A model generated the notes under the pieces. It did not search any database, was not told the DNA's origin, and worked only from the letters and a program-made list of their open reading frames with translations. The translations under genes and the position numbers were made by a program. A stretch of 54,851 nucleotides of DNA from a virus: IMG/VR virus record IMGVR_UViG_3300027733_001467, positions 1 through 54,851 of that record; one strand, 5' to 3'. Shown here in pieces: positions 188 to 54,779 of this stretch; within the stretch, counting starts at the first letter, position 1, and every line of letters starts with the position of its first letter.

Positions 188-310
188 ATGGGAACAAAAC
201 CTAAAAAGAAAAGAGCAATGAGAAGCGTTAAGTCTGGAGTTAAGACTGCAGAACTAATAAAGCAAAATCAAGAAATATTAAATAAATTAAAGAATGATAT
301 CTCTAACTAA
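188..310 (+). CDS. Small basic protein, 40 aa
   Basis: An ATG two bases after the preceding stop opens a 40-residue frame ending at TAA 308-310. The first half is strongly basic (MGTKPKKKRAMRSVKSG) and the second half could form one amphipathic helix (LIKQNQEILNKLKN). The next gene starts inside it at 294, a 17-base overlap, which fits translational coupling. The lysine/arginine content would suit a DNA-associated or packaged peptide, but no family is recognised. The call rests on its tight placement in the operon and on the in-frame neighbours. Confidence 0.55.
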   Translation: MGTKPKKKRAMRSVKSGVKTAELIKQNQEILNKLKNDISN

Positions 311-731
311 ATTATTAAAAGAAGATGAGTATGTAGACCAAGCCTACAAACTTGGTGATACTCCAACTGATAATCCAATTGATGATTATGATGAATTGGA
401 TGTTGAGCAAGAAGATATGGATGATTTCATAAACTTCTTAAAAGGTTATTCAACTCAATTGGAAGAAGCAAATTGTAATTGTGTTTATGAAGCAGAATAT
501 CAGGGTAGAGAAGTGAAGTTGGGTAAACCAATGCAAGGTGATGTTAAGAAGTTTAAGGTATATGTAAAAAATCCTAAGACTGGTAAAATTATTAAAGTAA
601 ACTTCGGACAAAAAGGAATGAAAATTAGAAAATCAAATCCTGCTGCTAGAAAATCATTTAGAGCAAGAATGAATTGTGATAATCCAGGTCCTAGAACAAA
701 GGCAAACTATTGGAGTTGCCGTAAGTGGTAA
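294..731 (+). CDS. Conserved modular phage protein with L-x-E leader
   Basis: This 145-residue protein starts MISLTKLLKE-D, a leader like those of the genes at 736, 1041 and 6797 that ends in L-x-E, the recognition form of T4-type prohead proteases. An acidic stretch (about residues 12-45) is followed by a basic module (about 70-145) with a KVYVKNPKTGKIIKV strand pair and a C-terminal R-x-N-C-D-N-P-G-P ... Y-W-S-C motif. I recall that last module from T4-like phages of marine bacteria, where its function is unknown. Four cysteines (two near residue 60, two near the end) could bind metal. A packaged head protein is my inference; only the motifs are seen. Confidence 0.8.
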   Translation: MISLTKLLKEDEYVDQAYKLGDTPTDNPIDDYDELDVEQEDMDDFINFLKGYSTQLEEANCNCVYEAEYQGREVKLGKPMQGDVKKFKVYVKNPKTGKIIKVNFGQKGMKIRKSNPAARKSFRARMNCDNPGPRTKANYWSCRKW

Positions 732-735
732 TTAT

Positions 736-1044
736 ATGATTAAATTAAAAAATATATTAAACGAATTATCTCCAGTTGGTAATATGAATGCTCATGGCGC
801 ATCAAAGGTATTAGGTAAGGGTGGAAAGGTTTTAGGATTTGTAGCAGATACTCCAAACGCTATAGCAACTTTGATACAAGAATATCCAAATGTTGAGGCA
901 ATAGAATTCAAAATGCCATTTTCATTTGAACGCAAAACATATAAAAAAATAAAAAAAGGTGATGCTGCTTGGAAAAAATTGATGGATAGATATATTGATA
1001 ATTCAACAAAAGCAATACTAAAAAAAGATTTTCAATTAAAGTGA
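736..1044 (+). CDS. Small phage protein with L-x-E leader, 102 aa
   Basis: The frame is open from 676, but the start at 736 is chosen because it lies just after the upstream stop (731) and gives the N-terminus MIKLKNILNE, matching the leaders of neighbouring proteins. The rest is a small alpha/beta-looking domain of about 90 residues with a basic C-terminal half (KRKTYKKIKK-like content) and no recognised family. Its stop TGA overlaps the GTG start of the next gene (GTGA), implying coupled translation. It may be a capsid-targeted internal protein cut after LNE; that is inference from the leader and the presence of a gp21-type protease at 51481. Confidence 0.75.
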   Translation: MIKLKNILNELSPVGNMNAHGASKVLGKGGKVLGFVADTPNAIATLIQEYPNVEAIEFKMPFSFERKTYKKIKKGDAAWKKLMDRYIDNSTKAILKKDFQLK

Positions 1045-2267
1045 TACAACTAACTAACATATTAAACGAAGACCTCCGTAAATGGTTTGGTAAGGGTGGT
1101 GCTGGTTCATCTACTGGTGGGGGATGGGATAGATATAATTCACAGGGAAAGAAAGTAGGTAAGTGTGGTGATAGTAAAGATGGTTCAGCATACGCAGCTT
1201 GTTTATCAAAAGAGAAAGCAGCAAAGTTAGGACCTGATGGTAGAGCATCATTTGTTAAAAGAAAGAGAGCTGCACAATCTAAAGCAGGTGATAGTAAAAA
1301 AGGTGGTGAACAATCTAAAGGACAGAAACCAACATTTGTAAAGACGGGAGCTAGTGAAGGATTGGAAGAAAAGTGGAGTTCAAAATATAAGAAATCAATT
1401 AATTGTAGTAACCCAAAAGGTTTCTCACAAAAAGCACATTGTGCTGGTAAAAAGAAAAATGAAAGTATGACAATAGAAGAAAAAATGGAATTGTTCTTAG
1501 AAAAGAATGTTCCTACTGACCCGGCAAAATGGGCAGCATCTAAAGCAGCAGCAAAAAGAAAATTTGATGTGTATCCATCAGCCTATGCAAATGGTTGGGC
1601 CGCAAAAAATTATAAAGCTAAAGGTGGTGGATGGAAGGTAGCTAAAGAAGGTGTACAAAATAACATTGATGAGGCTATAAACCCAGAAGTATTTAGAGAA
1701 TTTATGCAAGCATGTAATGATGCTGGATTAAACTCATTTCAAATATTTGGAATGCATGTATTGGTATATATTTTAACATTAGGGGCAACCGGTTTAACTA
1801 TTTTATCAGCATTGGGAATTGCACAATTAGCAAAAGATGCAAAAGATACATTTAATAATTGGAATGCTGGTAGAAAACTAAACCCAGAAAAAGTTAAAGC
1901 AATAGTTAAAGATTTTGAAAATAAAGTAAATAAACTAGAAGGTGGAAGGAAGAAATTTTTTCAAGGTATTATAAATAAAATGAAAAGAACAAATCCAGAG
2001 AATAAATCAGCATTGGTATCTATTAATAAAGATTTAGAACATTATGCACATGCATATGGTATTAAAGAAGAAAGTGTTATCAAAGAAGTAGAAGTAGGAC
2101 AGGGACATGAGAACGATAGAGATATGGTTGTAGGTGTTGCAGAAATACTTCGTATGGTAGATGATATGAACAATAGAAAGGAAATAGCAGAAGCTATGTT
2201 ACGAAAATTTAAATCAGAAGATGTTATACATAATGCAAAAGAGTTTATGACACTTTGTGGCATTTAA
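1041..2267 (+). CDS. Multi-module packaged-type protein, 408 aa
   Basis: The GTG start at 1041 overlaps the previous stop and is supported by the leader MIQLTNILNE. Modules follow in order: a GGGWDRYN...GKCGD...LSKEKAAKLG basic module (about 20-104; similar to a family I recall as DUF5872), a KKSINCSNPKGFSQKAHC cysteine module (about 115-140), a DPAKWA...KFDVYPSAYANGW module (about 155-195), a hydrophobic helix pair (about 236-264), and a helical C-terminal domain ending in a REIAEAMLRKFKSED-like motif. These modules recur in different combinations in phage proteins, and their role is unknown. A G·T-tolerant hairpin terminator follows at 2288. The leader suggests head targeting, and the hydrophobic segment could contact a membrane after ejection; both points are inference. 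Confidence 0.8.
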   Translation: MIQLTNILNEDLRKWFGKGGAGSSTGGGWDRYNSQGKKVGKCGDSKDGSAYAACLSKEKAAKLGPDGRASFVKRKRAAQSKAGDSKKGGEQSKGQKPTFVKTGASEGLEEKWSSKYKKSINCSNPKGFSQKAHCAGKKKNESMTIEEKMELFLEKNVPTDPAKWAASKAAAKRKFDVYPSAYANGWAAKNYKAKGGGWKVAKEGVQNNIDEAINPEVFREFMQACNDAGLNSFQIFGMHVLVYILTLGATGLTILSALGIAQLAKDAKDTFNNWNAGRKLNPEKVKAIVKDFENKVNKLEGGRKKFFQGIINKMKRTNPENKSALVSINKDLEHYAHAYGIKEESVIKEVEVGQGHENDRDMVVGVAEILRMVDDMNNRKEIAEAMLRKFKSEDVIHNAKEFMTLCGI

Positions 2268-6796: not shown

Positions 6797-7069
6797 ATGA
6801 TAAAGCTTACTCAATTAAACGAAGCATCTGAAGTAAAATTCAAAGAGCTAAAACCTATTCAACAAAAACAGGTTGTGGCATTTCAAAAAGTAATTGGTGC
6901 AGACCATTCTCAAATTTTTGCTGGTATTCACGGAATGGTTGTAGATATCCCAGCAAGAGGCAATTTTGGAACTGGTTATCGTTTTGGAGCTGATACTCTT
7001 AAAAAATTATTAGCATTAAAAATTCGTTGGGTTGAAGCAGATGGTGATGTAATTTCAATAGGATTCTAA
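6797..7069 (+). CDS. Small protein with L-x-E leader, 90 aa
   Basis: The protein begins MIKLTQLNE-A, matching the leaders at 294, 736 and 1041 and fitting a prohead-protease cut after LNE. The remaining 81 residues form one small domain with a PIQQKQVVAFQKVIG helix and a glycine-rich middle (ARGNFGTGYRFG), ending DGDVISIGF. No family is recognised. It starts one base after the upstream stop and its own stop abuts the next ATG (7070), so it is part of the same message as the Ntn-hydrolase-like gene. Packaging into the head is inferred from the leader only. Confidence 0.75.
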   Translation: MIKLTQLNEASEVKFKELKPIQQKQVVAFQKVIGADHSQIFAGIHGMVVDIPARGNFGTGYRFGADTLKKLLALKIRWVEADGDVISIGF

Positions 7070-7885
7070 ATGAAACTTTCAGAGTGCATAATCGTATCTA
7101 AAGAAATTAAAGATAAGTTTATTCTAGCTAAAAATAGAGATAGAGCTTATAATCCATCTTTAGAAATCGTACATACTATCATTGATGGTGTGGAAGTTGC
7201 ATATCTACATGATTTAATAACGGATTGGAGTGAGGGTTTAAACGAAAACGGAATTGGTGTTGTAAACTCAGCATTACTAGTTGGACACGATGAAGCTGAG
7301 GCTAAGCTTGTAAAAAAAGCTGGTAAACCTGGGCCTGATGGTGATAAGATGAGAAACATCATTAAGCAACCTACTCTAATTGATGCAGTAAGAGCTGCAC
7401 TTAAATATAAGGGTAAGAGTGGATTATCTCTTAAAGGTCATACATTTGTATCATCTCCAAAACATATGGTTAGTATTGAAACTACATCAAAGCATAAGCC
7501 TGATGTTAAACTTCAAAACTCCGAATCACCTGTTGTTCGTACAAATCACGGACATATGTTCACAGATGCTGGATATACAAGCGGTGAGAAATACCTAAGT
7601 TCAAAAATGAGAAAAATATCAGCAGAGAAATCGGTTGATAAAGTAGAGGATTGGAAAGCAATAGCACAGGCTATGAGAAAAGAATACTTTCCAAAGAAAC
7701 CTCAATTGAATATGAAAAGAGATACGGAAGAAATGTCTACATCATCTCAAACTGTAATGAATCTGACAGACCGTATATTACAAATAACTTACTTTAAGGG
7801 TAAGGTAAACGAATTCAAAGGTATTAATAGGAAACTACCTGAAGGATATCAACCAAAGATTACAATTGAAGTAATCCCAGTTTAA
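7070..7885 (+). CDS. Ntn-hydrolase-like acylase, possibly activated by prohead protease
   Basis: The 271-residue product begins MKLSE-C6 and continues with a strand, then AKNRD (residues 20-24). A cysteine followed about 16 residues later by an RN-x-D type motif is the start of the linear-amide C-N hydrolases (penicillin V acylase / C45 / choloylglycine hydrolase group), in which a freed N-terminal Cys is the nucleophile. The segment NENGIGVVNSALL fits the 'G-N-E-x-G-L' strand of that group. The short propeptide ends L-S-E, the form cut by gp21-type proteases, so maturation could expose Cys6. Substrate unknown; the family call is moderate, and activation by the protease is inference. Confidence 0.65.
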   Translation: MKLSECIIVSKEIKDKFILAKNRDRAYNPSLEIVHTIIDGVEVAYLHDLITDWSEGLNENGIGVVNSALLVGHDEAEAKLVKKAGKPGPDGDKMRNIIKQPTLIDAVRAALKYKGKSGLSLKGHTFVSSPKHMVSIETTSKHKPDVKLQNSESPVVRTNHGHMFTDAGYTSGEKYLSSKMRKISAEKSVDKVEDWKAIAQAMRKEYFPKKPQLNMKRDTEEMSTSSQTVMNLTDRILQITYFKGKVNEFKGINRKLPEGYQPKITIEVIPV

Positions 7886-25544: not shown

Positions 25545-25958
25545 GTGAGCTGGAAATTTAATGGAAATATTGTTACAGAAGAAACCACACCAGAAGGTGC
25601 GGTTGGATTTGTCTATAAGATAATTGATACTAGAACTAATAGATTCTATATAGGAAAGAAATCCTTATCTCAAACCCGTAGATTGAAACCCCTTAAGGGA
25701 AAGACTCGTAGGAGGGTTGTAAAGAAAGCATCTGATTGGGAAAAATACTACTCATCAAACGAATGGATTAAATCGGAAGTAAAAGCTGGAAACGCTGAAT
25801 ATTTTGAAAGAGAAATCATTCAATTTTGTTTCTCAAAAAAATCCTTATCATATTACGAAATAAAATGGCAGTTTCATTACGATGTCCTTGCCAACGAACA
25901 AGCAATAAACGAAAACCTTATGGGAAAATTCTTCCGTAGGGATATTATAAACCCATAG
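25545..25958 (+). CDS. GIY-YIG-like nuclease
   Basis: The GTG start lies immediately after the previous TAA. Residues 20-40 read GFVYKIIDTRTNRFYIGKK, matching the two strands of a GIY-YIG nuclease (G-F-V-Y for GIY, F-Y-I-G for YIG). A basic stretch (about 45-60) and the helix FEREIIQFCFSKKSLSYYE (about 88-106) with a conserved-type Glu follow, then a basic end. At 137 residues it is one compact domain with no DNA-binding extension, unlike typical homing endonucleases. T4 endonuclease II (DenA), which degrades host DNA, is also GIY-YIG, so host-DNA attack or a repair role are options. The metal-binding residues are not fully confirmed. Confidence 0.65.
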   Translation: MSWKFNGNIVTEETTPEGAVGFVYKIIDTRTNRFYIGKKSLSQTRRLKPLKGKTRRRVVKKASDWEKYYSSNEWIKSEVKAGNAEYFEREIIQFCFSKKSLSYYEIKWQFHYDVLANEQAINENLMGKFFRRDIINP

Positions 25959-30542: not shown

Positions 30543-33500
30543 ATGGCAAGAATTAAAAAATACTCCCCAACGATTGACCCGCATTTAAAATACTACGAAA
30601 CATTTTTAGTAGATACTGCGCCCAATTCAAGATACTTTAAGATTACAGAGTTTAAAGATACTTTTACTGGTGGTAAAAATGGATTTTTAATTGAAGGTTC
30701 TCCTGAACTTTTGGAGTCTACGGAAATTAAGATTGAAATTTTAGATGTTGAAGGAAACCCAATTTATTTTGAACCAGGTAATGGTATACCTGAATACTAT
30801 GAAGGTAATTCTAAAGTTATAGCAGTTTATGTTTATGAGGATACCCCAATAGGTACGGCTGATATTACTATATTAGGTGAATTAAAAAAATATTATGATG
30901 GTGTTCAATTAAAAGATATACCTGATGAGTGGAAAGGTATTTATAATGTAAAATGGCAGAGAGATTTTAAAGTAAACAAATTACTTTCAAATGAAGAAAA
31001 AGTAAGATTTTATAAAAGACCTACCATTACTATTACTGAAATTGTTAAACCTTTATTTACAACAATTTTACAACCAACTGTATTAAATGGGTTTGTTAAA
31101 GGGACTCCAATAGCACCATCTAATGAAACCTATTTAAAAGATTGGACATTACCAACGTACTATAAACTAACGGCTGAAAATGATGGAACTAACCCCGCTG
31201 TATTTTTTACAGGTTCTATGGTAGGTACAAAATTAAATTTTAGTCATCAAGTTTATGATGATATTAAAAACTTTAATCTTCCATACACCGACCCAATATT
31301 CGCTGCAGTAAATAGCTATTCACCAACTGTAGTAGAGGTATTAAACTCTACTGAAATATTAGTAACCCAACCATTTACGATAGATAATAAATTTGGAAAT
31401 CCATTTGTACAACCACTTCCAATTACTTTTCCAAAAAACCCCTTACCTTATGATTATAATGGCGATGGTACTAATGATTCAATTGGATTTACTCAACAAG
31501 CCTTGGGTGTACCATTTACCGCATCTTTTATTGATACTAAAAATATTATTAATATAGCAAGTGCACTAACTGGTTCATTTGCAAAAATAGATATAAGAGA
31601 ATTAAGGACATTTACAGGTGATGTAGCTAGAGTTAGGATATTCAGAAAATCTCAATCAGATGTAGGAAATTATCAATTTACTCAAGAGGTGTTATTGGAA
31701 TCAAATGAACTATTAGTAGATTATACTGTAGAAACAAAAAACCAAGAAAATTATGGTATATTTACAGAACCAATTATAACTGATTATTGGGATGCATCGG
31801 CTGGATTGACTACAACATTTAATCAAGATTATTTATACGATTCCGTAGAATTGGATGCTGGGTCTGTACCTAAATATTTTAGTACAAAAGATACATTTAC
31901 TTTAAATGAAGGTAAGGAATATGCTTTAAGTTTTAATATTAGAAAAAACGGAATAGATGATACAAGTTATTTAAGAGCATTTATAAGTGGTTCAAGACAA
32001 GTAACAACAAACGGAGTAACAAAAACAATACAAATTCAGCAAGATTTTGTAAAAATATATACTGACCCCATTATATTACAAAAAACTACATCTACTAATA
32101 ATATAAAAGTAGAACAAATAGATAATGCAAAACTTTATTTTGAAGTAAGAGGAACTAATTGGTATATAGCAAATGTAAGTTTAGTTGCTGCACAAGAAAC
32201 AGCATTTTCTCCTGATGAAATAACATTTATACAATCAGTACCAAGAACATTAACAGCAGAAACTTTTGATTATCGTTTTGAATTTTATGATATAAATAAT
32301 AACTACATACCTGTAAAAGTTGAAACTCAAAAACTTTTTACTGGTGGTAATTTACAAGCAATTAAAAAGGGTATTTTCTTTAATCCAAAAATTTTAACAT
32401 TTACATTTGATTCGGCATCCCATCCAGTACCACCAACTACACAATCATTTAATGTAGAAAAGTTTTTAATTACTGGTTCTATAACTTATACATCACAATC
32501 TTATGATTATAATGGTAATTTATTATCTGGATTAGATTATCTTACTGCAGAAGGAATGCCTGGTTTATTAGATTTGTTCGACCCATTATCAGCATCTGAT
32601 ATAGATAATCCATCTATGACAGTAAATCATTTTACAGGTTCAAACGCAGATAAAACAGTCCAACTTATTAAAATTACAGGAACAACTGAAGGTTATTCAG
32701 ATACAGTTACCTATGTTAGAATATTGGATGGGTTTGGTGGAGTAAACCATATTATTAGACCTTATAGAGGAACACAAATTAGAAACAGTAGTACTCAAAG
32801 TTTAGAAGTACAAGCAATTAGAATAGATGGTATAAATGATATAGAATTAAGTGCAGCATCAAGACCTGATAAAAAATGGAATTTAATCCAACTGCATGTA
32901 CTGAGCGGTTCACAACCTTATCAAAAATTTATTAATTTAGAGAAAGCAAATAGTAGCGGGTTTGTGCAAGGATTAAGTGTTGGTGAATTAGGTAGTAAGG
33001 AATTAAACTTTAATGCCGTATTTAATCGTGATTCTATCAATAAAAGAATAACGGTATATATGATTGATTCTGCATCAGCAGCATACGATTGGGCATATAA
33101 TACATCTGGTTCTGTTTTAGCATCTCAAATATTAGAAGATTTGCAAGATGGATTGGATAGTGGTATAGTTAAATTTAATGCAGATACATTTAATATTGAT
33201 TTTAGAAATAGTCTATTATTTGCACCACCATCGGCATCAGCAACTGCGTCATTTTATATAAGGGGTTCGAATACCCAAACAGTAACTGCATCTTTCCAAG
33301 TATTTCCATCTATGTCAATTAATGATTGGTATGAGCCTGAATATTGGATATATTATACTACTCAAAGTGTGGATACTACAATATCAGTATCAGCTATTGA
33401 TGAGAAAAAAAATGTTGTTAATGCTGGGGCAATCGGTTCGTATATAGGAGCTAATAATAAACAAAGTAAAAATTTAACATTAACATTTACATATACTGAA

Positions 33501-36500
33501 CCATATACTAATGCAACTGCAAATATAGATAAAACATTTACTATTGTACAAAGTGGTAAACCTGGAGATGAAACTATAATATTTGAAGTAACCCCTGCTA
33601 ATGTAACATTAAATGCAAATTCAAAAGGAACGGTATTGGATTACAAACCATCAATTACTGATATTAGATTAAAGCAGGGGTCTAGGTATCTATTGTTTAC
33701 CGCTAGTGCTGGTAATCCTGGTAAAGGAAACGATGGTACATTCCATATAGCTCAAAATCAAATAACATCAATAAACATAAATTCTGGTAGTGTTTATTTC
33801 AATAATTCATATACATCATCTTTAAGTGCTAGCGCAGCATCTAATTTTGTTCAATTAAGTGGTAGTATTACATATCCACTAATCATACATCCTTATTACA
33901 CATCATCAATTTATACGGCAAGTGTTGTACAGCAATTTACAAAAGCTGTAGACGGAGCACCACCAATTCAGGTAATAATAAATCCTGCAAATGTTAATTT
34001 AGGAGCAGACCAAATTGGTATTGTTAAAGATTATAATCAAGCAAATACAATAATCAAATTAAAAGAAGGAACTGATTATTTAGTATATACAAATACTCAA
34101 CAACCTGGTACTTTTAGAACATCATCGGTTACACAAACAAATATTAGTGTATCCACATTAACAGCAGACCCATCCGATACAACAAATTTAATTGTAAGTG
34201 GATATAGTGCTATGAATTCTAATAGTGCTAGTATTCAATATAATTTTGATGTATATCCATACTCACTTTTACCTGGCCATAGAACTGGTTCAATTGCAGT
34301 TAGTGGTTCTCAATATTTTACAAGAACGAAAGATGGGCAAACTGCAAGAAGTGTAACTCTAACAGCAAATTCTTTAGTAATAACTTTTGATGGAGATTCT
34401 TCGAATCCTGATCCTGGTACTATTACATTAACAGCAAAATCATTTGGAGTAACTGGTTCGGCATACTATCAATTTTTTAAAGATGGAATTTCATTAGGTG
34501 CACCGCTTACCGGCACTACAAAAAATTTAAATTCATCATATCTTCCTATTGCTAATGCTAAGTCTGTATATAAAGTTGAATTAAGAGATGGCTCAGCCAC
34601 ATTACCTGTTGCAGCAACTGCCGAAATTACAATAGCTGGTGTTAAGGCTGGTGGTGATGGTTATACTGTAACTTTAACAAATGAAAATACATCTATTGTA
34701 TATAAAGTATCTGGTGCAACTACAACAACGGGAACTGGTACAAGTATATTAGCAAGTAAAGGAACAACAGCATTACAACATGTATCTACATTTAATAATC
34801 AAACCTATGATAATGATGGAACTTATATAGGTTCTTTAGGGCAATATAAAGTTACAATAGATAGTAAATCTGGTTGGTTGGCTTTAGCTGGTAGTCTTGT
34901 ATCTGGGAGTACTGTACCAACTGTTTCAAATGTAGCTGTTCTTGGAGACATATCAGGATATACAAGTCCTAATTTATATCCAACGGCAAATATAGTTTTT
35001 AAAGTAGATGTAGAGGATGGTAGAGCAGTATATTATAAAACAGAATCAATAGCAGTTCAGTATGAAGGAAACACTGGACCTGGTATAGTAATGAGAGGAG
35101 TTTATAAAGCTACAACAAATTATATTGGTAGTGTAGAAACAACAAACTATCGTAGAGATGCAGTAATATATCCAGACCCAACAACTGTAGTAGATGGTGT
35201 AACAACTTACTATGCAGCTGTTAGTGGTAGTGGGCCTGCAAGTAGTGTACATGCACCAAACGCAGGTGGTAATAATGATTGGTGGCAGTATTTAGGAACT
35301 CAAGAATTCTTCATAGCAGCTAAGATTGCAATATTTGATGAATCGTATGTAAAGAATACAATTAATGTTGGTACTTACGCAGATACTTCAAAATTTGCAA
35401 ATGTAATTATAGCCGGCGGTAGAACTGACCCATATATCGCTATTGGGCAGCATGGTACATATGGAACTGGTAGTGGTGGGTACTCACCAACAGACCCTGC
35501 TATTATTGGATATGGACAAGAGGGTATTTATTTAGGAATATACGAATATCCAGCAGTAAACGGAACTACTGGTAGATTCTCAATTAGTAATGCGGATGGT
35601 AGTAAGGCACTTAAATGGGATGGTTCTCAATTAATTATCAGAGGTTCGATAAAACAAACTGACGCTGGTGCAAATGAACCAACATTAAAAGGAGTTTGGG
35701 CATTCGGTATTACTTACTATAATAATGATGTAGTTAGTTATGATGGAAAATCTTGGATATGTACATCTGCAACATCTCACTTTTCAACTAATAATACAAA
35801 TAGTACAACTGGATATCCTGGCTTTGGTCCTTGGAGTACATATATTGATAAAGGTGATACTGGAGCTGGTGTAGTATATAGAGGTCCATTCACAATAGGA
35901 ACGGCATATAGTAGTAGTGCGGTTAGAAAAGATGTTGTACAAGGTATTGACGGTGCATACTATCTATCTAAATTAACATATATACCAGCTAATACTGATT
36001 CAAGACCTGGAGTAGGGCAAACTGCACCAGCTGGTTCAACCGCTGGTACATATTGGCAAACATTTGGAGCAACATTTAGCTCAGTAGCAACTGATATATT
36101 ATTAGCACAAGAAGCTACAATAACAAGAGGATTAGTTATGGGTAGTGATGCTGGTGGTATTGGCGTAATACGTTCTGTTGATGCATATTCTTTTACATCT
36201 GGTAGTGGGTTTTTTATGGATAAAACTGGAATAGCTAGATTCGGAAATCCCGCGGGTAATCAAATAAAATTTGATGGAACTGATTTCCAAATTACTGGTT
36301 CAATAAATGCAACGGATGGACAAATTGGAGATTGGGTTATTGATGAAACTACAAGAGCATTAAGAGATAGTGATTCTCAATTAATATTTGACCCAAATGT
36401 TCCTGAAATACAATTTTATACTGGAAGTGGTGAAGGTAGGAGTAAAAAGGTAAGTATATCCCCACTAAAATTATTATCGGATTCTGGCGGCGGTTCAAAC

Positions 36501-38096
36501 ACTGTAAATTTCACAGGTTCATATTCGCCAGCAAATCCATCAATAACAACAAATGCAGGTGATGGTTCACCCGTATTTGTAACTAGTTATTCAACAAAAA
36601 CATCGACTGGTGGTTCTTCATCAAATGGTACATTTACACCAGCTGACGCAGGTGATTATCAACTAACTATTGTTACTCCTAGTTTTGCAGTAGAAACCGG
36701 ACCTGATACAATATCACATACTTCAACTGAACCAGACTTTGAAGCACCTTACGATGGATACATACATACCGGATATTCTAATGCACAACAAGCATCTGCT
36801 GTTTTATATATAGAAGCCGTAAAAGTTAGTGATAATAGTGTAGTTGGTAGTCACCTTATTGGAAGTTCTACTTCCGTTGGGGCAAAAAATGTAGCTGGCT
36901 ATTGGATTGGGTATCTTGGATATCTTTCTGTTACAGGCGATACATTAATTATAAATGAATTTGGAAACGAAGTTTATGCTAGAGATATTATTAGTGGACA
37001 AAATATAACTGCATGGAATTGGAGTGATTCGTTTAGCACATATAAAGTAGAAAATGTAAAAAGTAGAACTATTGATAAAGTATTCAAAGTTTCTGCTGGA
37101 GGTAATGAAGTAAAAGTATCAGATTCGCATGGATTTTGGTTAGATGGTAACGAACAAATCAAAGCTAAAGATTTAATACCGGGTGTTAGTAAAATAAATA
37201 TAAGAGATGGTAATACTATTAAATTAGTAATTGTAGATGATGTGGAAATAATTGAGGGTGATGAAATGGTATATACATTCTCTGTACCTGGTGTAAATAA
37301 CTATATTTCAAATGGTATAATATCTCACAATAGTCCAATGGGCATGACAAACTGGGTAGAAGTACCTGAAAGTATCAACGCAGGTGGTTATGGCGCAATA
37401 AGTGGTTATACTCAGACAATAAATATGTATATAGATTCTACAACACCAGTACAATTTAGATATAGATTTTATTATTACGCATATTCAGGAGTTCAAACTG
37501 ATATAGGAGCATCCCCACTTTCTTATACCACTACCTATTATCCTTGGACATTTAATACATGGACCACATCACCATCATTTGCTAGTTCTATTATAGTAAA
37601 AGCACCAACAAACTTTGTTGAAATTAATGCAGGTGGAATGCAAGTAGTATCAGATGAAAATAGATACGTTAAAATGGCAAGACAAGAAGTTGGAGTTGGA
37701 GTTTCCGATTTACTTAAAGTTTTGGGCGGAAATATTAAAACAGATACTATATTACCAAATGTGGCAGATACAAGTACTATTGGTACAAATGCGAATCAAT
37801 ATGGACATGTGTATGCTAATAATTTTACTAATAATGCATCTTCAGTAAGTGCAAACGGTTATACAAAATTAACAAATGGAATTATACTACAATGGGGATA
37901 TGCAACCTACACTACAACAGCAACACCTGTGACATTTCCATTAACGTTCCCCACTGCTTGTACGTCTGTACATGTAACAACAAACAGACTTACTAATGGA
38001 GCAGGTGGATATAATCATGCTGGTGATGTAACAACAAGTGGATTTAAAGCAGTATTCGATGCAGTAGGTGGATGGTGGTCGGCAATTGGATATTAA
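30543..38096 (+). CDS. Giant tail fibre protein with in-frame mini-intein-like domain, 2517 aa
   Basis: The largest product here. Long beta-rich regions (about 1-1080) are followed by Ig-like segments (about 1090-1480: ITLTANSFGVTGSAYYQFFKDG). Three carbohydrate-binding-module-like stretches lie around 1517-1570, 1715-1760 (GVWAFGITYYNNDVVSYDG) and 1780-1840. A Hint/mini-intein-like domain spans S2129-N2263. The last about 90 residues (GYTKLTNGIILQWGYATYTT) match the gp53-like tail-fibre tip domain. It is likely the long fibre that binds the host surface. The following gene looks like its assembly partner. If the Hint domain splices, the mature chain would lack 135 residues. Confidence 0.85.
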   Translation: MARIKKYSPTIDPHLKYYETFLVDTAPNSRYFKITEFKDTFTGGKNGFLIEGSPELLESTEIKIEILDVEGNPIYFEPGNGIPEYYEGNSKVIAVYVYEDTPIGTADITILGELKKYYDGVQLKDIPDEWKGIYNVKWQRDFKVNKLLSNEEKVRFYKRPTITITEIVKPLFTTILQPTVLNGFVKGTPIAPSNETYLKDWTLPTYYKLTAENDGTNPAVFFTGSMVGTKLNFSHQVYDDIKNFNLPYTDPIFAAVNSYSPTVVEVLNSTEILVTQPFTIDNKFGNPFVQPLPITFPKNPLPYDYNGDGTNDSIGFTQQALGVPFTASFIDTKNIINIASALTGSFAKIDIRELRTFTGDVARVRIFRKSQSDVGNYQFTQEVLLESNELLVDYTVETKNQENYGIFTEPIITDYWDASAGLTTTFNQDYLYDSVELDAGSVPKYFSTKDTFTLNEGKEYALSFNIRKNGIDDTSYLRAFISGSRQVTTNGVTKTIQIQQDFVKIYTDPIILQKTTSTNNIKVEQIDNAKLYFEVRGTNWYIANVSLVAAQETAFSPDEITFIQSVPRTLTAETFDYRFEFYDINNNYIPVKVETQKLFTGGNLQAIKKGIFFNPKILTFTFDSASHPVPPTTQSFNVEKFLITGSITYTSQSYDYNGNLLSGLDYLTAEGMPGLLDLFDPLSASDIDNPSMTVNHFTGSNADKTVQLIKITGTTEGYSDTVTYVRILDGFGGVNHIIRPYRGTQIRNSSTQSLEVQAIRIDGINDIELSAASRPDKKWNLIQLHVLSGSQPYQKFINLEKANSSGFVQGLSVGELGSKELNFNAVFNRDSINKRITVYMIDSASAAYDWAYNTSGSVLASQILEDLQDGLDSGIVKFNADTFNIDFRNSLLFAPPSASATASFYIRGSNTQTVTASFQVFPSMSINDWYEPEYWIYYTTQSVDTTISVSAIDEKKNVVNAGAIGSYIGANNKQSKNLTLTFTYTEPYTNATANIDKTFTIVQSGKPGDETIIFEVTPANVTLNANSKGTVLDYKPSITDIRLKQGSRYLLFTASAGNPGKGNDGTFHIAQNQITSININSGSVYFNNSYTSSLSASAASNFVQLSGSITYPLIIHPYYTSSIYTASVVQQFTKAVDGAPPIQVIINPANVNLGADQIGIVKDYNQANTIIKLKEGTDYLVYTNTQQPGTFRTSSVTQTNISVSTLTADPSDTTNLIVSGYSAMNSNSASIQYNFDVYPYSLLPGHRTGSIAVSGSQYFTRTKDGQTARSVTLTANSLVITFDGDSSNPDPGTITLTAKSFGVTGSAYYQFFKDGISLGAPLTGTTKNLNSSYLPIANAKSVYKVELRDGSATLPVAATAEITIAGVKAGGDGYTVTLTNENTSIVYKVSGATTTTGTGTSILASKGTTALQHVSTFNNQTYDNDGTYIGSLGQYKVTIDSKSGWLALAGSLVSGSTVPTVSNVAVLGDISGYTSPNLYPTANIVFKVDVEDGRAVYYKTESIAVQYEGNTGPGIVMRGVYKATTNYIGSVETTNYRRDAVIYPDPTTVVDGVTTYYAAVSGSGPASSVHAPNAGGNNDWWQYLGTQEFFIAAKIAIFDESYVKNTINVGTYADTSKFANVIIAGGRTDPYIAIGQHGTYGTGSGGYSPTDPAIIGYGQEGIYLGIYEYPAVNGTTGRFSISNADGSKALKWDGSQLIIRGSIKQTDAGANEPTLKGVWAFGITYYNNDVVSYDGKSWICTSATSHFSTNNTNSTTGYPGFGPWSTYIDKGDTGAGVVYRGPFTIGTAYSSSAVRKDVVQGIDGAYYLSKLTYIPANTDSRPGVGQTAPAGSTAGTYWQTFGATFSSVATDILLAQEATITRGLVMGSDAGGIGVIRSVDAYSFTSGSGFFMDKTGIARFGNPAGNQIKFDGTDFQITGSINATDGQIGDWVIDETTRALRDSDSQLIFDPNVPEIQFYTGSGEGRSKKVSISPLKLLSDSGGGSNTVNFTGSYSPANPSITTNAGDGSPVFVTSYSTKTSTGGSSSNGTFTPADAGDYQLTIVTPSFAVETGPDTISHTSTEPDFEAPYDGYIHTGYSNAQQASAVLYIEAVKVSDNSVVGSHLIGSSTSVGAKNVAGYWIGYLGYLSVTGDTLIINEFGNEVYARDIISGQNITAWNWSDSFSTYKVENVKSRTIDKVFKVSAGGNEVKVSDSHGFWLDGNEQIKAKDLIPGVSKINIRDGNTIKLVIVDDVEIIEGDEMVYTFSVPGVNNYISNGIISHNSPMGMTNWVEVPESINAGGYGAISGYTQTINMYIDSTTPVQFRYRFYYYAYSGVQTDIGASPLSYTTTYYPWTFNTWTTSPSFASSIIVKAPTNFVEINAGGMQVVSDENRYVKMARQEVGVGVSDLLKVLGGNIKTDTILPNVADTSTIGTNANQYGHVYANNFTNNASSVSANGYTKLTNGIILQWGYATYTTTATPVTFPLTFPTACTSVHVTTNRLTNGAGGYNHAGDVTTSGFKAVFDAVGGWWSAIGY
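36927..37331 (+). other. Mini-intein-like (Hint) domain within the tail fibre
   Basis: Translated residues S2129-N2263 (135 aa) show Hint blocks. Block A is S-V-T-G-D-T-L-I with Ser in place of the usual first Cys. Block B has SDSH with H2196, then QIKAKDLIPG. Block F is VYTFSVPGVNNYISNG. Block G is IISHN followed by Ser2264. The C-terminal H-N-S arrangement is the splicing junction of inteins. No homing endonuclease lies inside, so it is a minimal form. Whether it splices or only cleaves is unknown. Confidence 0.8.
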
Positions 38097-42688: not shown

Positions 42689-45091
42689 ATGAATGAATTA
42701 TCAAATTTTTTAGTAGAATCAATATTATTGGAAGCGGCCTCTATAAACAAAGTAATTGTTGTTTATTCTGGCCGCTTTCAACCTTTTCATAAGGGCCATT
42801 ACGCAACTTATGATAATTTAGTACGCAAATTCGGAAAGGATAGTGTGTATATCGGAACTTCTAATGTTACCGATTCAAAGAAATCTCCATTTAATTTTAA
42901 AGAGAAGAAAGCAATAATGACAAATATGTTTGGTATTCCATCAAACAAAATTGTCAATATCAGAAATCCCTATGCACCTGAAGAAATTCTAAATAAATAC
43001 GATGAAGATACAACTGGTTTAATAGTTGTAGTTGGTGAGAAAGATGAGCAAAGACTTGGTGGTAAATATTTCACACCATATAAAGGTAAAGTAACTGAAC
43101 CTTTTTTAGATAGAGGATATGTTTATGCAGCACCAGCAGAATCAAACCCAATTAGTGGTACTGATGTTCGTTATTGGTTAAGTGCTGGAAGTGCTGCTGA
43201 TAGAAAGAAAAACTTTACAAAAGCATATCCTAGATTTGATGACCAAATATTCAAATTAATTACCCTTAAGTTAAAGAGTTTAAAAGAATGTATTAATGAG
43301 GAAATTAAAATAAATGTAAAAATTGGAGATACTATTCTAATGGGTAGATTTAAAAATAAAAAAGTAGTTGTAAAAACAATAGGTACAGATGATTGGGGAA
43401 TGCCAACAATCAATGGTAAGAAGGTAGCAACATTTAGAATTCCAAAAAAAGATAATTTAAAAGAAATGGGACTTGGTGGCGGAGCTGGTGTAGGTTTAAG
43501 TTTACCGGGTGGATATATTAATGGAGCACCTGATAGTAAAGATGTTAAGAAGAATAGCAAAAAACTTAACAACAACGGAATGAGTGGATATGAGGAGATT
43601 GATGAAGAAAATAACATTTTAGAATACACTGGAAACGAAGCGTTTGATAATGATACGGGTGGCACTACTGGACACACTTGGAATAAAGATTGGGAAGAAT
43701 ATGATAAAGCTGAATATTATTTAGAAGATTTAGAAGGTTGGGAAAATATGAATCATAAGAGTGATAAAGATGACAAAATAAGAAAAAACAAAGTTCCAAT
43801 TTTTAATCACGACGATACAACTGATAAATACAATCGTATATTAAAGCATGATTTAAAATCTCCTAATGATTTTATAAAAGAATCATTAATAATGGAAGGT
43901 GGAGCTTATGGACATATGGCACATCCATTTGATATTGAGATGGGTTTAACATTTGGTGACCTTAAACAAATAGTAGTAAGAGCTCTTAATGGTGATTTGG
44001 AATTAGCAAGAGAAAAGACTGATGGGCAGGCATTGGCAATTAGTTGGGTAAATGGTAGATTGGTTGCAGCTCGTAATAAATCTCATTTAAAAGATAAAGG
44101 AGTTGGTGCTATGACAATAGGACAGGTAGCAGATAAGTTTGCTGGTAGAGGTGGATTAACTGATGCATACAATTTCGCTATGCAAGATTTATCTAAAGCA
44201 ATTGGAGCCCTATCCGAACCTCAACGTAAGAAGGTTTTTAACGATGGTAGTTCGTTTATGAACTTGGAAGTAATATATCCAACGTCTGTAAATGTAATCC
44301 CTTACAATCAACCCCTATTAGTATTTCATGGTACATTTGATTATGATATGACTGGTACTATAATTGGACAAAATCAAGACGCAGCAAAAGTATTAGGTGG
44401 AATGATTAAGCAAGTAAATGCACACGTTCAATCCAAATATACAATACAGGGACCTCCAATGCAAACACTTCCTAAAACCGAACATCTTTCTAAATTACAA
44501 GGAAAGTATTTAGGAATGATTTCTAAACTACAATCTGAATTTGGATTAGCTGACTCTGATGGTGTAGCAGATTATCACCAAGCTTGGTGGACAAATTTTG
44601 TAGAAAAGGGAGCAAAGAAATTGGATGCACAGCAAAAGATAGGACTAATTAAAAGATGGGCTTTTGGAGATAAAAGCTTTCGTATAGCGGATATAAAAGA
44701 TGATAAGATAAGAGCTTGGGCTGACCAAACAGATAAGCAAGACCAACAAAAGATATCAAAGCAAAATTTAATGAGATTTGAGGAAATATTCTTAGGTGTG
44801 GGAGCAGATGTATTATCATTTATGACATCAGTATTAACTGCAAATCCTGCAGAAGCTACTAAACAAATGAAAGCAAAATTACAAAGTACAATATCGCAAG
44901 TAAAAGCAAGTGGTGACCCTAAAAAGATTGCAAAACTTAAATTAGAATTAAGTAGAATGCAGGCTTTAGGTGGATTTGATAAAATCGTACCAAATGAGGG
45001 ATTGGTATTTGTATATGGTGGAAACACCTATAAACTAACAGGTGCATTCGCACCCCTAAATCAAATTTTAGGCATATTTTTTGATTCTTAA
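42689..45091 (+). CDS. Fused HxGH nucleotidyltransferase and ligase-like enzyme with L-x-E sites, 800 aa
   Basis: The leader MNELSNFLVE-S precedes a nucleotidyltransferase domain (about 20-190): SGRFQPFHKGH with H34-xx-H37, and ISGTDVRYWL, the S-x-T-x-x-R signature of NMN-adenylyltransferase-like enzymes. A linker (about 195-405) contains further L/I-x-E sites (CINE-E, LIME-G). The C-terminal domain (about 405-800) has the covalent nucleotidyltransferase plan of ligases: K443-T-D-G (motif I), FMNLE527 (motif III) and E770-G-L-V with YKL (motif IV/V). Similar C-terminal domains occur, as I recall, in marine T4-like phages. It may act on NAD or RNA ends. Packaging into the head and cleavage between domains are inference. 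Confidence 0.75.
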   Translation: MNELSNFLVESILLEAASINKVIVVYSGRFQPFHKGHYATYDNLVRKFGKDSVYIGTSNVTDSKKSPFNFKEKKAIMTNMFGIPSNKIVNIRNPYAPEEILNKYDEDTTGLIVVVGEKDEQRLGGKYFTPYKGKVTEPFLDRGYVYAAPAESNPISGTDVRYWLSAGSAADRKKNFTKAYPRFDDQIFKLITLKLKSLKECINEEIKINVKIGDTILMGRFKNKKVVVKTIGTDDWGMPTINGKKVATFRIPKKDNLKEMGLGGGAGVGLSLPGGYINGAPDSKDVKKNSKKLNNNGMSGYEEIDEENNILEYTGNEAFDNDTGGTTGHTWNKDWEEYDKAEYYLEDLEGWENMNHKSDKDDKIRKNKVPIFNHDDTTDKYNRILKHDLKSPNDFIKESLIMEGGAYGHMAHPFDIEMGLTFGDLKQIVVRALNGDLELAREKTDGQALAISWVNGRLVAARNKSHLKDKGVGAMTIGQVADKFAGRGGLTDAYNFAMQDLSKAIGALSEPQRKKVFNDGSSFMNLEVIYPTSVNVIPYNQPLLVFHGTFDYDMTGTIIGQNQDAAKVLGGMIKQVNAHVQSKYTIQGPPMQTLPKTEHLSKLQGKYLGMISKLQSEFGLADSDGVADYHQAWWTNFVEKGAKKLDAQQKIGLIKRWAFGDKSFRIADIKDDKIRAWADQTDKQDQQKISKQNLMRFEEIFLGVGADVLSFMTSVLTANPAEATKQMKAKLQSTISQVKASGDPKKIAKLKLELSRMQALGGFDKIVPNEGLVFVYGGNTYKLTGAFAPLNQILGIFFDS

Positions 45092-51480: not shown

Positions 51481-52077
51481 ATGAAAGGACTTTTAATAGA
51501 AACAAAATTATTTGAGGGAAAAGTACAAGAAGATGAAGGTGGAAGAACCATTGTTAAAGGTATTCTACAAAGAGCTGGTGCTGAAAATCAAAACGGAAGA
51601 ATTTATCCGAAAGAAATCCTAATGAGAGAAGCTAAGAAGTATGAGGTATTCATTAAAGAGCGTAGAGCATTAGGTGAATTAGACCATCCGGATTCTACTG
51701 TAATTAACTTAAAGAATGTTTCTCACAATATTAGAGAGATTCATTGGGACGGTGATGATTTATGTGGAACTGTTGAAGTTCTATCTACTCCATCTGGTAA
51801 TATCTTAAAAGAATTATTGAAAGCTGGTATCCTATTAGGTATTTCATCAAGAGGTATGGGTTCTACTCGTAACTTATCTGGAAACAAAGTAGAGGTACAA
51901 GAAGATTTTGAATTGATTGGTTGGGATTTTGTATCTAACCCATCTACACATGGTGCATTTATGGTACCTGTAAACGAATCGGTTAATAGAGGTTTACAAC
52001 AAATAGGAACTGATGTTTGCGGAGACTTCTGTAAAGCACAAGACTTAATGAGAGAAATAATAACTGAAATAGCATAA
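51481..52077 (+). CDS. gp21: Prohead core protease (gp21-like)
   Basis: The 198 residues match T4 gp21-type proteases (U9/S78 family). The NGRIYPKE entry (about 38-45), the catalytic His H69 in GELDH69P, and the serine in GIS122-S123-RG form the active site, with a WDFVSNPSTHGAFM end. These enzymes cut head proteins after (L/I)-x-E. Its own N-terminus has KLFE-G at residues 9-13, a likely self-cleavage site. It sits between core-type genes and ahead of scaffold and major capsid, the T4 order. Its presence supports reading the many L-x-E leaders in this window as cleavable head-targeting peptides. Confidence 0.93.
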   Translation: MKGLLIETKLFEGKVQEDEGGRTIVKGILQRAGAENQNGRIYPKEILMREAKKYEVFIKERRALGELDHPDSTVINLKNVSHNIREIHWDGDDLCGTVEVLSTPSGNILKELLKAGILLGISSRGMGSTRNLSGNKVEVQEDFELIGWDFVSNPSTHGAFMVPVNESVNRGLQQIGTDVCGDFCKAQDLMREIITEIA

Positions 52078-53660: not shown

Positions 53661-54779
53661 ATGGCAAGTTCAAAATTGTTGAAAGAAGCAATTGCTGATG
53701 CTAAAGCTGTACGTGAAACTGCTATCGCTAATGCTAAAATCGCACTAGAAGAAGCATTTACTCCTCGTTTACAATCTATCTTATCTCAAAAATTACAAGC
53801 CGAAATGGAAGGTGATGAAGAAGATACGGAAGATGCAGTAAATGAAGATAATGATACTTCAAGTGAAATAGCTAAAGGTGATAACAAACAACCTGCAGAT
53901 AAAGCAAATTCAGCACAAACTGACCTAAGTGGAATCTCTAAACAATCTGGTGAGCCAGGTAGCGAAGGTGAAGAAACTAAAGTTAAAGACCTTACTGAAG
54001 GCGAAGATGAGTTTGGTGCAGAAGAAGAAATTCCTGCAGAAGAACCAGCAGCTATGGAAGGTGAAGACATGGCTCCAGAAATGGACATGGATGCAGATGA
54101 CGAAGATGAGTTAGATTTAGAATCTATCATCAGAGAGTTAGAAGCACAAATCGCAGGTGAAGAAAGTGAGGAAGAAATTCCTGCTGAAGCACCAGCTATG
54201 GAAGGTGAAGAAGCGCCGGTTGAAGAACCAGTAGCAGCTGAACCAACTGAAGCACCAGCAGTAGAGGGTGAAGACCCAGCTATGGCTGATGATGAAATTG
54301 ACTTAGACGAGATTCTAAGAGAAATGGGATACGGAGAAGATGAAGCTGAAGAAGAAAAAGCTGACGATGCAACTGAAACTCAGGCTAAAATGGAATCATT
54401 ACAGTCTGAATTAGAAGAAGCATTAGCAGTAATTAAATCTTTAAAAGGAACAATCAACGAAGTAAACCTTTTAAACGCTAAATTACTTTACACAAACAAA
54501 TTGTTCAGAAGTTATAACCTAACTAACGAACAAAAAGTTAAAGTTGTAGAAAATTTAGACAGAACTTCTAACGTAAGAGAAGTTAAATTAGTTTACGCAA
54601 CACTTTCTGAATCAATGAAATTCACAGGAACTGAAAGAAAAGTAGCTCAAGTTAAAAAGAACATTACCGAAGGTATTGCTTCTAAGGCTCAAGCTTCAAC
54701 AGCTCCTAAAAAAGAAATTATTTCTGAAAGTAATGAATTAGCAAATCGCTTTAAGCAATTAGCTGGTATCATAAAATAA
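53661..54779 (+). CDS. gp22: Prohead scaffold/core protein (gp22-like)
   Basis: The 372 residues start MASSKLLKE-A, an L-x-E leader, and are helical and basic at first (ETAIANAKIALEEAF). A long acidic, Glu/Pro/Ala-rich middle (about 50-240) with repeated AMEGEE and EEIPAE units follows, then a helical C-terminal third (about 245-372) with LNAKLLYTNKLFRSYNLTNEQ, which matches the conserved end of T4-like scaffolds. Sites such as LTE-G and VNE-D fit removal by the prohead protease. T4 gp22 has 269 residues, so this one is longer, mostly by the acidic middle. It lies directly before the major capsid gene. A weak AAGGAA precedes the start. Confidence 0.88.
   Translation: MASSKLLKEAIADAKAVRETAIANAKIALEEAFTPRLQSILSQKLQAEMEGDEEDTEDAVNEDNDTSSEIAKGDNKQPADKANSAQTDLSGISKQSGEPGSEGEETKVKDLTEGEDEFGAEEEIPAEEPAAMEGEDMAPEMDMDADDEDELDLESIIRELEAQIAGEESEEEIPAEAPAMEGEEAPVEEPVAAEPTEAPAVEGEDPAMADDEIDLDEILREMGYGEDEAEEEKADDATETQAKMESLQSELEEALAVIKSLKGTINEVNLLNAKLLYTNKLFRSYNLTNEQKVKVVENLDRTSNVREVKLVYATLSESMKFTGTERKVAQVKKNITEGIASKAQASTAPKKEIISESNELANRFKQLAGIIK

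What the first reader, a model, noticed from the sequence alone, without database searches (positions are those of the whole stretch)
7070..7885. Ntn-hydrolase-like enzyme whose nucleophile may be freed by the prohead protease
The protein starts MKLSE followed by Cys6 and an AKNRD segment, the plan of C45/choloylglycine-type hydrolases where an N-terminal Cys is the nucleophile. The short propeptide ends exactly in L-S-E, so a head protease cut would expose the cysteine and switch the enzyme on only inside maturing capsids. I know of no described case of this coupling.
Basis: partly seen in the sequence, partly recalled or inferred. Interest (0 to 1): 0.8.

Follow-up and report, generated by a model that had tools for sequence, protein, structure and literature searches.

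The report
Phage enzyme armed by head protease
A gene in a large T4-like virus of bacteria encodes an enzyme whose catalytic cysteine is hidden behind a few extra residues that end, in every relative that has them, in the exact motif cut by the virus's own head-assembly protease, so the enzyme is probably switched on when the virus head matures.

Summary
The ORF at 7070-7885 is real: 271 aa, MKLSE-C6, then AKNRD. AlphaFold (pLDDT 86, pTM 0.86) plus Foldseek place it in the Ntn fold of isopenicillin-N acyltransferase, bile-salt hydrolase and penicillin V acylase. Among 142 distinct relatives (down to about 40% identity) Cys6 is invariant. All 135 with a propeptide end in [LIV]-x-E just before it, although P2 (12 residues) and length (usually 4-13 aa) vary freely; background for any Cys is 1.9%. 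The other seven, in at least two lineages, start Met-Cys, so Met removal would expose the same Cys. In L230 and L336 the enzyme lies inside longer fused proteins, again directly after L-x-E. The window encodes a T4-type prohead protease (Peptidase_S77, E 4e-27); the capsid proteins have [LIV]-[SD]-E at the expected cleavage site, and an unrelated neighbouring protein has the same kind of junction (9 of 9), which argues against self-processing as the reason for the motif. No paper found here describes the coupling. Cleavage, packaging and substrate are undemonstrated; Met-Cys forms show the coupling is not universal; the shortest propeptides (MINE) leave little room for a targeting signal.

The parts
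7070..7885 (+). C45/choloylglycine-like Ntn hydrolase proenzyme, 271 aa
   Evidence: fold; Pfam AAT / NCBIfam C45 in relatives; C45_proenzyme E 2.2e-5 for the window protein
7070..7084 (+). propeptide MKLSE: predicted prohead-protease site L-S-E|C
   Evidence: [LIV]-x-E in 135/135 distinct propeptides
7085..7087 (+). Cys6, predicted N-terminal nucleophile of the mature enzyme
   Evidence: invariant in all relatives; Met-Cys forms in at least two lineages
51481..52077 (+). T4 gp21-type prohead protease (Peptidase_S77), predicted activator
   Evidence: PF03420 E 4.3e-27; PHROG 207 head maturation protease E 3.9e-50
6797..7069 (+). adjacent small protein with capsid-targeting-like N-terminus MIKLTQLNE|ASEV
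   Evidence: sequence directly
1041..2267 (+). MIQLTNILNE|DLRKWFG.. protein; its homologues keep [LVM]-x-E before DLRKWFG, also inside longer ORFs
294..731 (+). MISLTKLLKE|DEYV.. protein; homologue fused to the Ntn domain in L228 and L336
736..1044 (+). MIKLKNILNE|LSPV.. protein, capsid-targeting-like N-terminus
53661..54779 (+). prohead scaffold (gp22-like, by position), MASSKLLKE|A start
   Evidence: position after gp21 and before the major capsid protein in relatives

Best explanation
The gene makes an inactive precursor of a C45/choloylglycine-type Ntn hydrolase (amidase or acyltransferase). Its short N-terminal propeptide ends in L-S-E, the recognition motif of the phage's own gp21-type prohead protease. 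Steps: (1) the precursor is made late and taken into the prohead (inferred); (2) gp21 cuts after Glu5 during head maturation (inferred from the motif); (3) the cut frees the alpha-amino group of Cys6, which Ntn chemistry needs, so the enzyme becomes active inside the head (follows from known Ntn chemistry); (4) the active enzyme is carried in the virion and probably ejected with the DNA, like T4 Alt (inferred). The substrate is not known.
For: Fold: AF2 pLDDT 86.4, pTM 0.86; Foldseek best hits 2x1c/2x1d isopenicillin-N acyltransferase E 3.6e-8, then BSH, PVA, NAAA; C45_proenzyme in the window protein (2.2e-5) and in all six other members scanned (down to 4.7e-15); Pfam AAT over its cut-off in three members. 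Cleavage motif: 135/135 propeptides end [LIV]xE; P1 Glu 0 bits, P3 1.0 bit, P2 2.95 bits, length varied; on the tree 0 changes at P1, 24 at P2, 18 in length. Alternative route to the same Cys: Met-Cys in at least two lineages (AU test rejects one clade). Fused forms L230 and L336 with L-x-E|C 155 and 486 codons into the ORF. Protease: window 51481-52077, found in 16 of 28 and 6 of 11 relative records, many of them fragments. Capsid protein sites LLDE|A, LVSE|A, LISE|A, LLSE|A; MA9V FLNE|S against FLNE|C in its Ntn protein. An unrelated protein shows the same junction, 9/9. In G004 the gene lies between gp21 and scaffold/capsid genes. Literature: gp21 cuts after L/I-X-E; T4 Alt is cut at ITE-6; Asp at the P1 position of the IPIII signal blocks processing (PMC9026906, PMC5694885).
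Against: No direct proof of cleavage or of presence in virions; the one relevant virion gel (MA9V-1) had no protein identification. Met-Cys lineages keep gp21 (L222, L268-L270, L274 records) yet bypass it, so the coupling is dispensable there. The shortest propeptides (MINE, MIKE) are too short for a T4-type targeting signal as well as a cut site, so how the enzyme enters the head is open. In 101 of 142 loci the gene sits next to baseplate genes rather than head genes.
Confidence: 0.75

Rival explanations
1. Autocatalytic activation: like C45 acyltransferase or acid ceramidase, the precursor cuts itself before Cys6, and the Glu and Leu are needed for self-cleavage.
For: C45 relatives are classed by NCBIfam as autoproteolytic; E5 is nearly as invariant as the active-site residues.
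Against: The conserved signature is P3 hydrophobic, P2 free, P1 Glu, which is the gp21 motif; a non-Ntn protein in the same phages has the same kind of junction, as do the capsid proteins. The NCBIfam C45 profile starts matching only near its position 100, so the long N-terminal part of the autoproteolytic proenzymes is missing here. Known family self-cleavage sites are Gly-Cys, Ile-Cys or Phe-Cys (own knowledge).
Confidence: 0.13
2. The L-x-E peptide is only a capsid-targeting tag that is removed in the head; exposing the nucleophile is a side effect, or the enzyme is a dead structural relative.
For: Many proteins in these genomes begin with similar tags (MIKLKxLLxE).
Against: In every sequence the cut would fall exactly at the Cys, never a residue earlier or later; Met-Cys alternatives expose the same residue; K21-N22-x-D24, T158-N159-H160 and other candidate catalytic residues are invariant. 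The shortest forms have no tag apart from the cut site.
Confidence: 0.08
3. Another protease (host Glu-specific, or another phage enzyme) removes the propeptide in the cytoplasm, outside capsids.
For: The short propeptides lack a clear targeting part; the gene is usually next to baseplate genes.
Against: No such protease was identified; the motif matches the gp21 specificity and the capsid-protein sites of the same phages.
Confidence: 0.04

Closest known systems
T4 Alt (packaged ADP-ribosyltransferase) and internal proteins IPI-III
   Same: short N-terminal propeptide removed by gp21 after L/I-x-E (Alt: ITE-6); enzyme carried in the head and ejected into the host (PMC9026906, PMC5694885)
   Different: different enzyme fold; in T4 proteins the residue exposed is not known to be catalytic, and the authors leave open whether the Alt propeptides control activity
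C45 acyl-CoA:isopenicillin-N acyltransferase family (PF03417, NF040521)
   Same: Ntn fold (best Foldseek hits), Cys nucleophile, KN-x-D and TNH-type motifs, profile matches in several members
   Different: about 90-residue autoproteolytic N-terminal part absent, replaced by a usually 4-13 residue L-x-E propeptide; window protein is far below the NCBIfam cut-off (24 of 85 bits)
Choloylglycine hydrolases / penicillin V acylase (C59)
   Same: fold; N-terminal Cys freed by removal of Met or a very short propeptide (own knowledge), as in the Met-Cys phage forms
   Different: activated without a second, dedicated protease

Membership tests
C45/C59-type Ntn hydrolase (AAT/choloylglycine superfamily) | alpha-beta-beta-alpha Ntn fold | tested here: met
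   AF2 model; Foldseek PDB hits to IAT, BSH, PVA, NAAA, best E 3.6e-8, prob 1.00
C45/C59-type Ntn hydrolase (AAT/choloylglycine superfamily) | conserved nucleophile Cys at the mature N-terminus | tested here: inconclusive
   Cys invariant and next to a predicted cut site or to Met1; actual mature N-terminus not measured
C45/C59-type Ntn hydrolase (AAT/choloylglycine superfamily) | profile score over curated cut-off | tested here: inconclusive
   Pfam AAT cut-off reached by L209, L228, L336 but not by the window protein; NCBIfam C45 cut-off not reached by any
C45/C59-type Ntn hydrolase (AAT/choloylglycine superfamily) | amidase or acyltransferase activity | not testable with these tools
   needs purified enzyme
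gp21-processed head protein of T4-like phages | L/I-x-E at the propeptide end | tested here: met
   [LIV]xE 135/135
gp21-processed head protein of T4-like phages | Peptidase_S77 protease encoded in the same phage | tested here: met
   window 51481-52077; relatives
gp21-processed head protein of T4-like phages | present and cleaved in virions | not testable with these tools
   no identified virion proteome found for this phage group
C45 autoproteolytic proenzyme | long N-terminal part before the Cys, cut autocatalytically | tested here: not met
   only 4-13 residues before Cys in nearly all; NCBIfam profile matches only from about position 99 on

The most novel reading that the evidence does not exclude
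A virion-carried Ntn hydrolase whose nucleophile is unmasked in trans by the prohead protease, so that catalytic activity is tied to head maturation; the armed enzyme is then injected with the genome to act on the host at the first moment of infection.
Probability: 0.55. Interest if true: 0.85.

Novelty: new variant of a known kind. Interest (0 to 1): 0.77.

Why it matters
Ntn hydrolases usually free their own nucleophile or rely on Met removal. Here a capsid-assembly protease appears to do it, which would tie enzyme activity to a step of virus assembly. It would answer, for one protein class, the question left open for T4 Alt: whether head-protease propeptides control activity as well as targeting. 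It also predicts a new class of virion-borne enzymes in T4-like phages, probably of Bacteroidota, and gives a testable handle in cultured phages (MA9V-1/2).

Tried and rejected
PHROGs gave no match for the window protein, and Pfam none over cut-off; phmmer and profile search of PDB sequences gave nothing meaningful. Two genome-contig scans found no cellular homologue by the peptide-pattern method, so a non-phage control for the E-C motif was not obtained. Searches of the INPHARED phages found only MA9V-1/2. A scan with L230 found only itself. A count of N-terminal [LI]xE over all predicted proteins was clearly above control windows in G004 (71 against 20-52) but not in G001 (32 against 14-33) and barely in the window (11 against 4-10), so genome-wide enrichment is not claimed. 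Considered and rejected: wrong start codon (Met-Cys forms and short upstream open frames in many loci argue against it); chance (1.9% background).

Full report
What is there. The ORF at 7070-7885 (+) encodes 271 aa, MKLSE-C6-IIVSKEIKDKFILAKNRD. The window is a 54.9-kb virus record from a T4-like phage: terminase, portal, a Peptidase_S77 prohead protease at 51481-52077 (E 4.3e-27) and a scaffold-like gene. A relative infects Chryseobacterium (phages MA9V-1 and MA9V-2, 44% identity), which points to Bacteroidota hosts (inference).

Is it an Ntn hydrolase? The window protein has no Pfam or PHROG match over threshold, but NCBIfam C45_proenzyme matches it at E 2.2e-5, and matches the six other members scanned down to E 4.7e-15, always below the curated cut-off. 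Pfam AAT exceeds its cut-off in L209, L228 and L336. A model from 32 relatives has pLDDT 86 and pTM 0.86, and its best PDB matches are isopenicillin-N acyltransferase (2x1c, 2x1d), bile-salt hydrolases, penicillin V acylases and NAAA. Invariant residues include C6, K21-N22-R23-D24, and R157-T158-N159-H160. From own knowledge these correspond to the nucleophile, the RN-x-D motif and the oxyanion Asn of the superfamily. The C6-D24 spacing of 18 equals C103-D121 of isopenicillin-N acyltransferase (own knowledge, not re-tested).

The propeptide. From 370 loci, 142 distinct sequences were obtained. 135 carry a propeptide, and every one ends [LIV]-x-E immediately before the Cys: L 96, I 35, V 4. P1 Glu has no variation, P2 takes 12 different residues, and length is usually 4-13 aa: MINE, MKLSE, MNIIQE, MNKLINE, MAKELLKE, MKKDILINE. 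Clustering at 70% identity leaves 13 of 13. On the 48 propeptide-bearing rows of a 55-row maximum-likelihood tree the fewest changes are 0 at P1, 24 at P2 and 18 in length. The background for [LIV]xE before any Cys in three genomes of the group is 1.9%. These searches used patterns from the body of the protein, apart from one of the six patterns, so the N-terminal motif was not selected for.

Two independent controls come from evolution. First, seven distinct relatives start Met-Cys; they fall in at least two lineages (one clade rejected), and L222 is close to propeptide-bearing L203. Removal of Met by methionine aminopeptidase would give the same mature enzyme. Second, in L230 and L336 the enzyme is embedded in longer ORFs with its Cys 155 and 486 codons in, still directly after S-L-D-E and P-L-T-E. 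L230 begins with a capsid-targeting-like MKFKKIISNLQE. L336 joins homologues of the window proteins 1041-2267 and 294-731 to the enzyme. If the long frames are translated whole, the nucleophile of these two can become N-terminal only by proteolysis.

Which protease? T4 gp21 cuts after L/I-X-E, removing propeptides of 7 to 65 residues in mature virion proteins. Alt is cut at ITE-6. For IPIII, residues 8 and 10 control processing, and Asp at 10 blocks it (PMC9026906, PMC5694885). In relatives of the window the major capsid protein has LLDE|A, LVSE|A, LISE|A or LLSE|A at the position homologous to the T4 cut (position judged by eye), and MA9V has FLNE|S, nearly the same as FLNE|C of its Ntn protein. 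The DLRKWFG protein, unrelated to Ntn hydrolases, has [LVM]-x-E before its constant mature start in 9 of 9 sequences, stand-alone or inside longer ORFs. This separates a shared processing protease from Ntn self-cleavage. In G004 the Ntn gene (MAKLLNE|C) lies between gp21 and the scaffold and capsid genes.

What is shown and what is inferred. Shown by computation: the gene, fold, invariant Cys, invariant [LIV]xE, the protease gene, and the fused forms. Inferred: that gp21 cuts here, that this happens only in proheads, that the enzyme is carried and injected, and that it hydrolyses an amide. Weak points: the Met-Cys lineages keep gp21 but bypass it; the shortest propeptides leave little room for targeting; the gene is most often beside the baseplate cluster (101 of 142 loci); no cellular control family was retrieved.

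Known or new. In the open-access library no paper holds both 'prohead protease' and 'Ntn hydrolase', and related searches found no description of the coupling. Packaged, gp21-trimmed enzymes are known (Alt), and Ntn hydrolases are known; a head protease that unmasks an Ntn nucleophile appears undescribed. I file it as a new variant of a known kind.

Noticed in passing
window 30543-38096 (tail-fibre ORF, 2517 aa): Contains an intein/Hint-like stretch (S-VTGDTLIINEFGNEVYARDIISG ... YISNGIISHN-S), possibly an intein with Ser instead of Cys at position 1, judged by eye.
   Followed up: no
window 42689-45091: 800-aa protein with a cytidylyltransferase/NMNAT-like domain (PF01467 E 7.7e-8) and a capsid-targeting-like start MNELSNFLVE..SILLE|A; longer homologues (999 and 1155 aa) in G001 and G004; may be a packaged multi-domain precursor.
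   Followed up: partly
L164, L169, L336: Long ORFs in which the DLRKWFG domain starts 201-353 codons in, directly after [LV]-x-E, suggesting that these phages make head proteins as precursors cut by the prohead protease.
   Followed up: partly
MA9V-1 126501-130544 (OR050627.1): The prohead protease domain is part of a 1349-aa open frame instead of the usual 200-aa gene.
   Followed up: no
G004 (record of L191) 139784-143151: A row of small genes each starting MIKLKxLLxE or MKLKELMNE, possibly a bank of head-packaged proteins.
   Followed up: no
window 25545-25958: N-terminus resembles a GIY-YIG nuclease domain (GFVYKIIDTRTNRFYIGKK), judged by eye.
   Followed up: no
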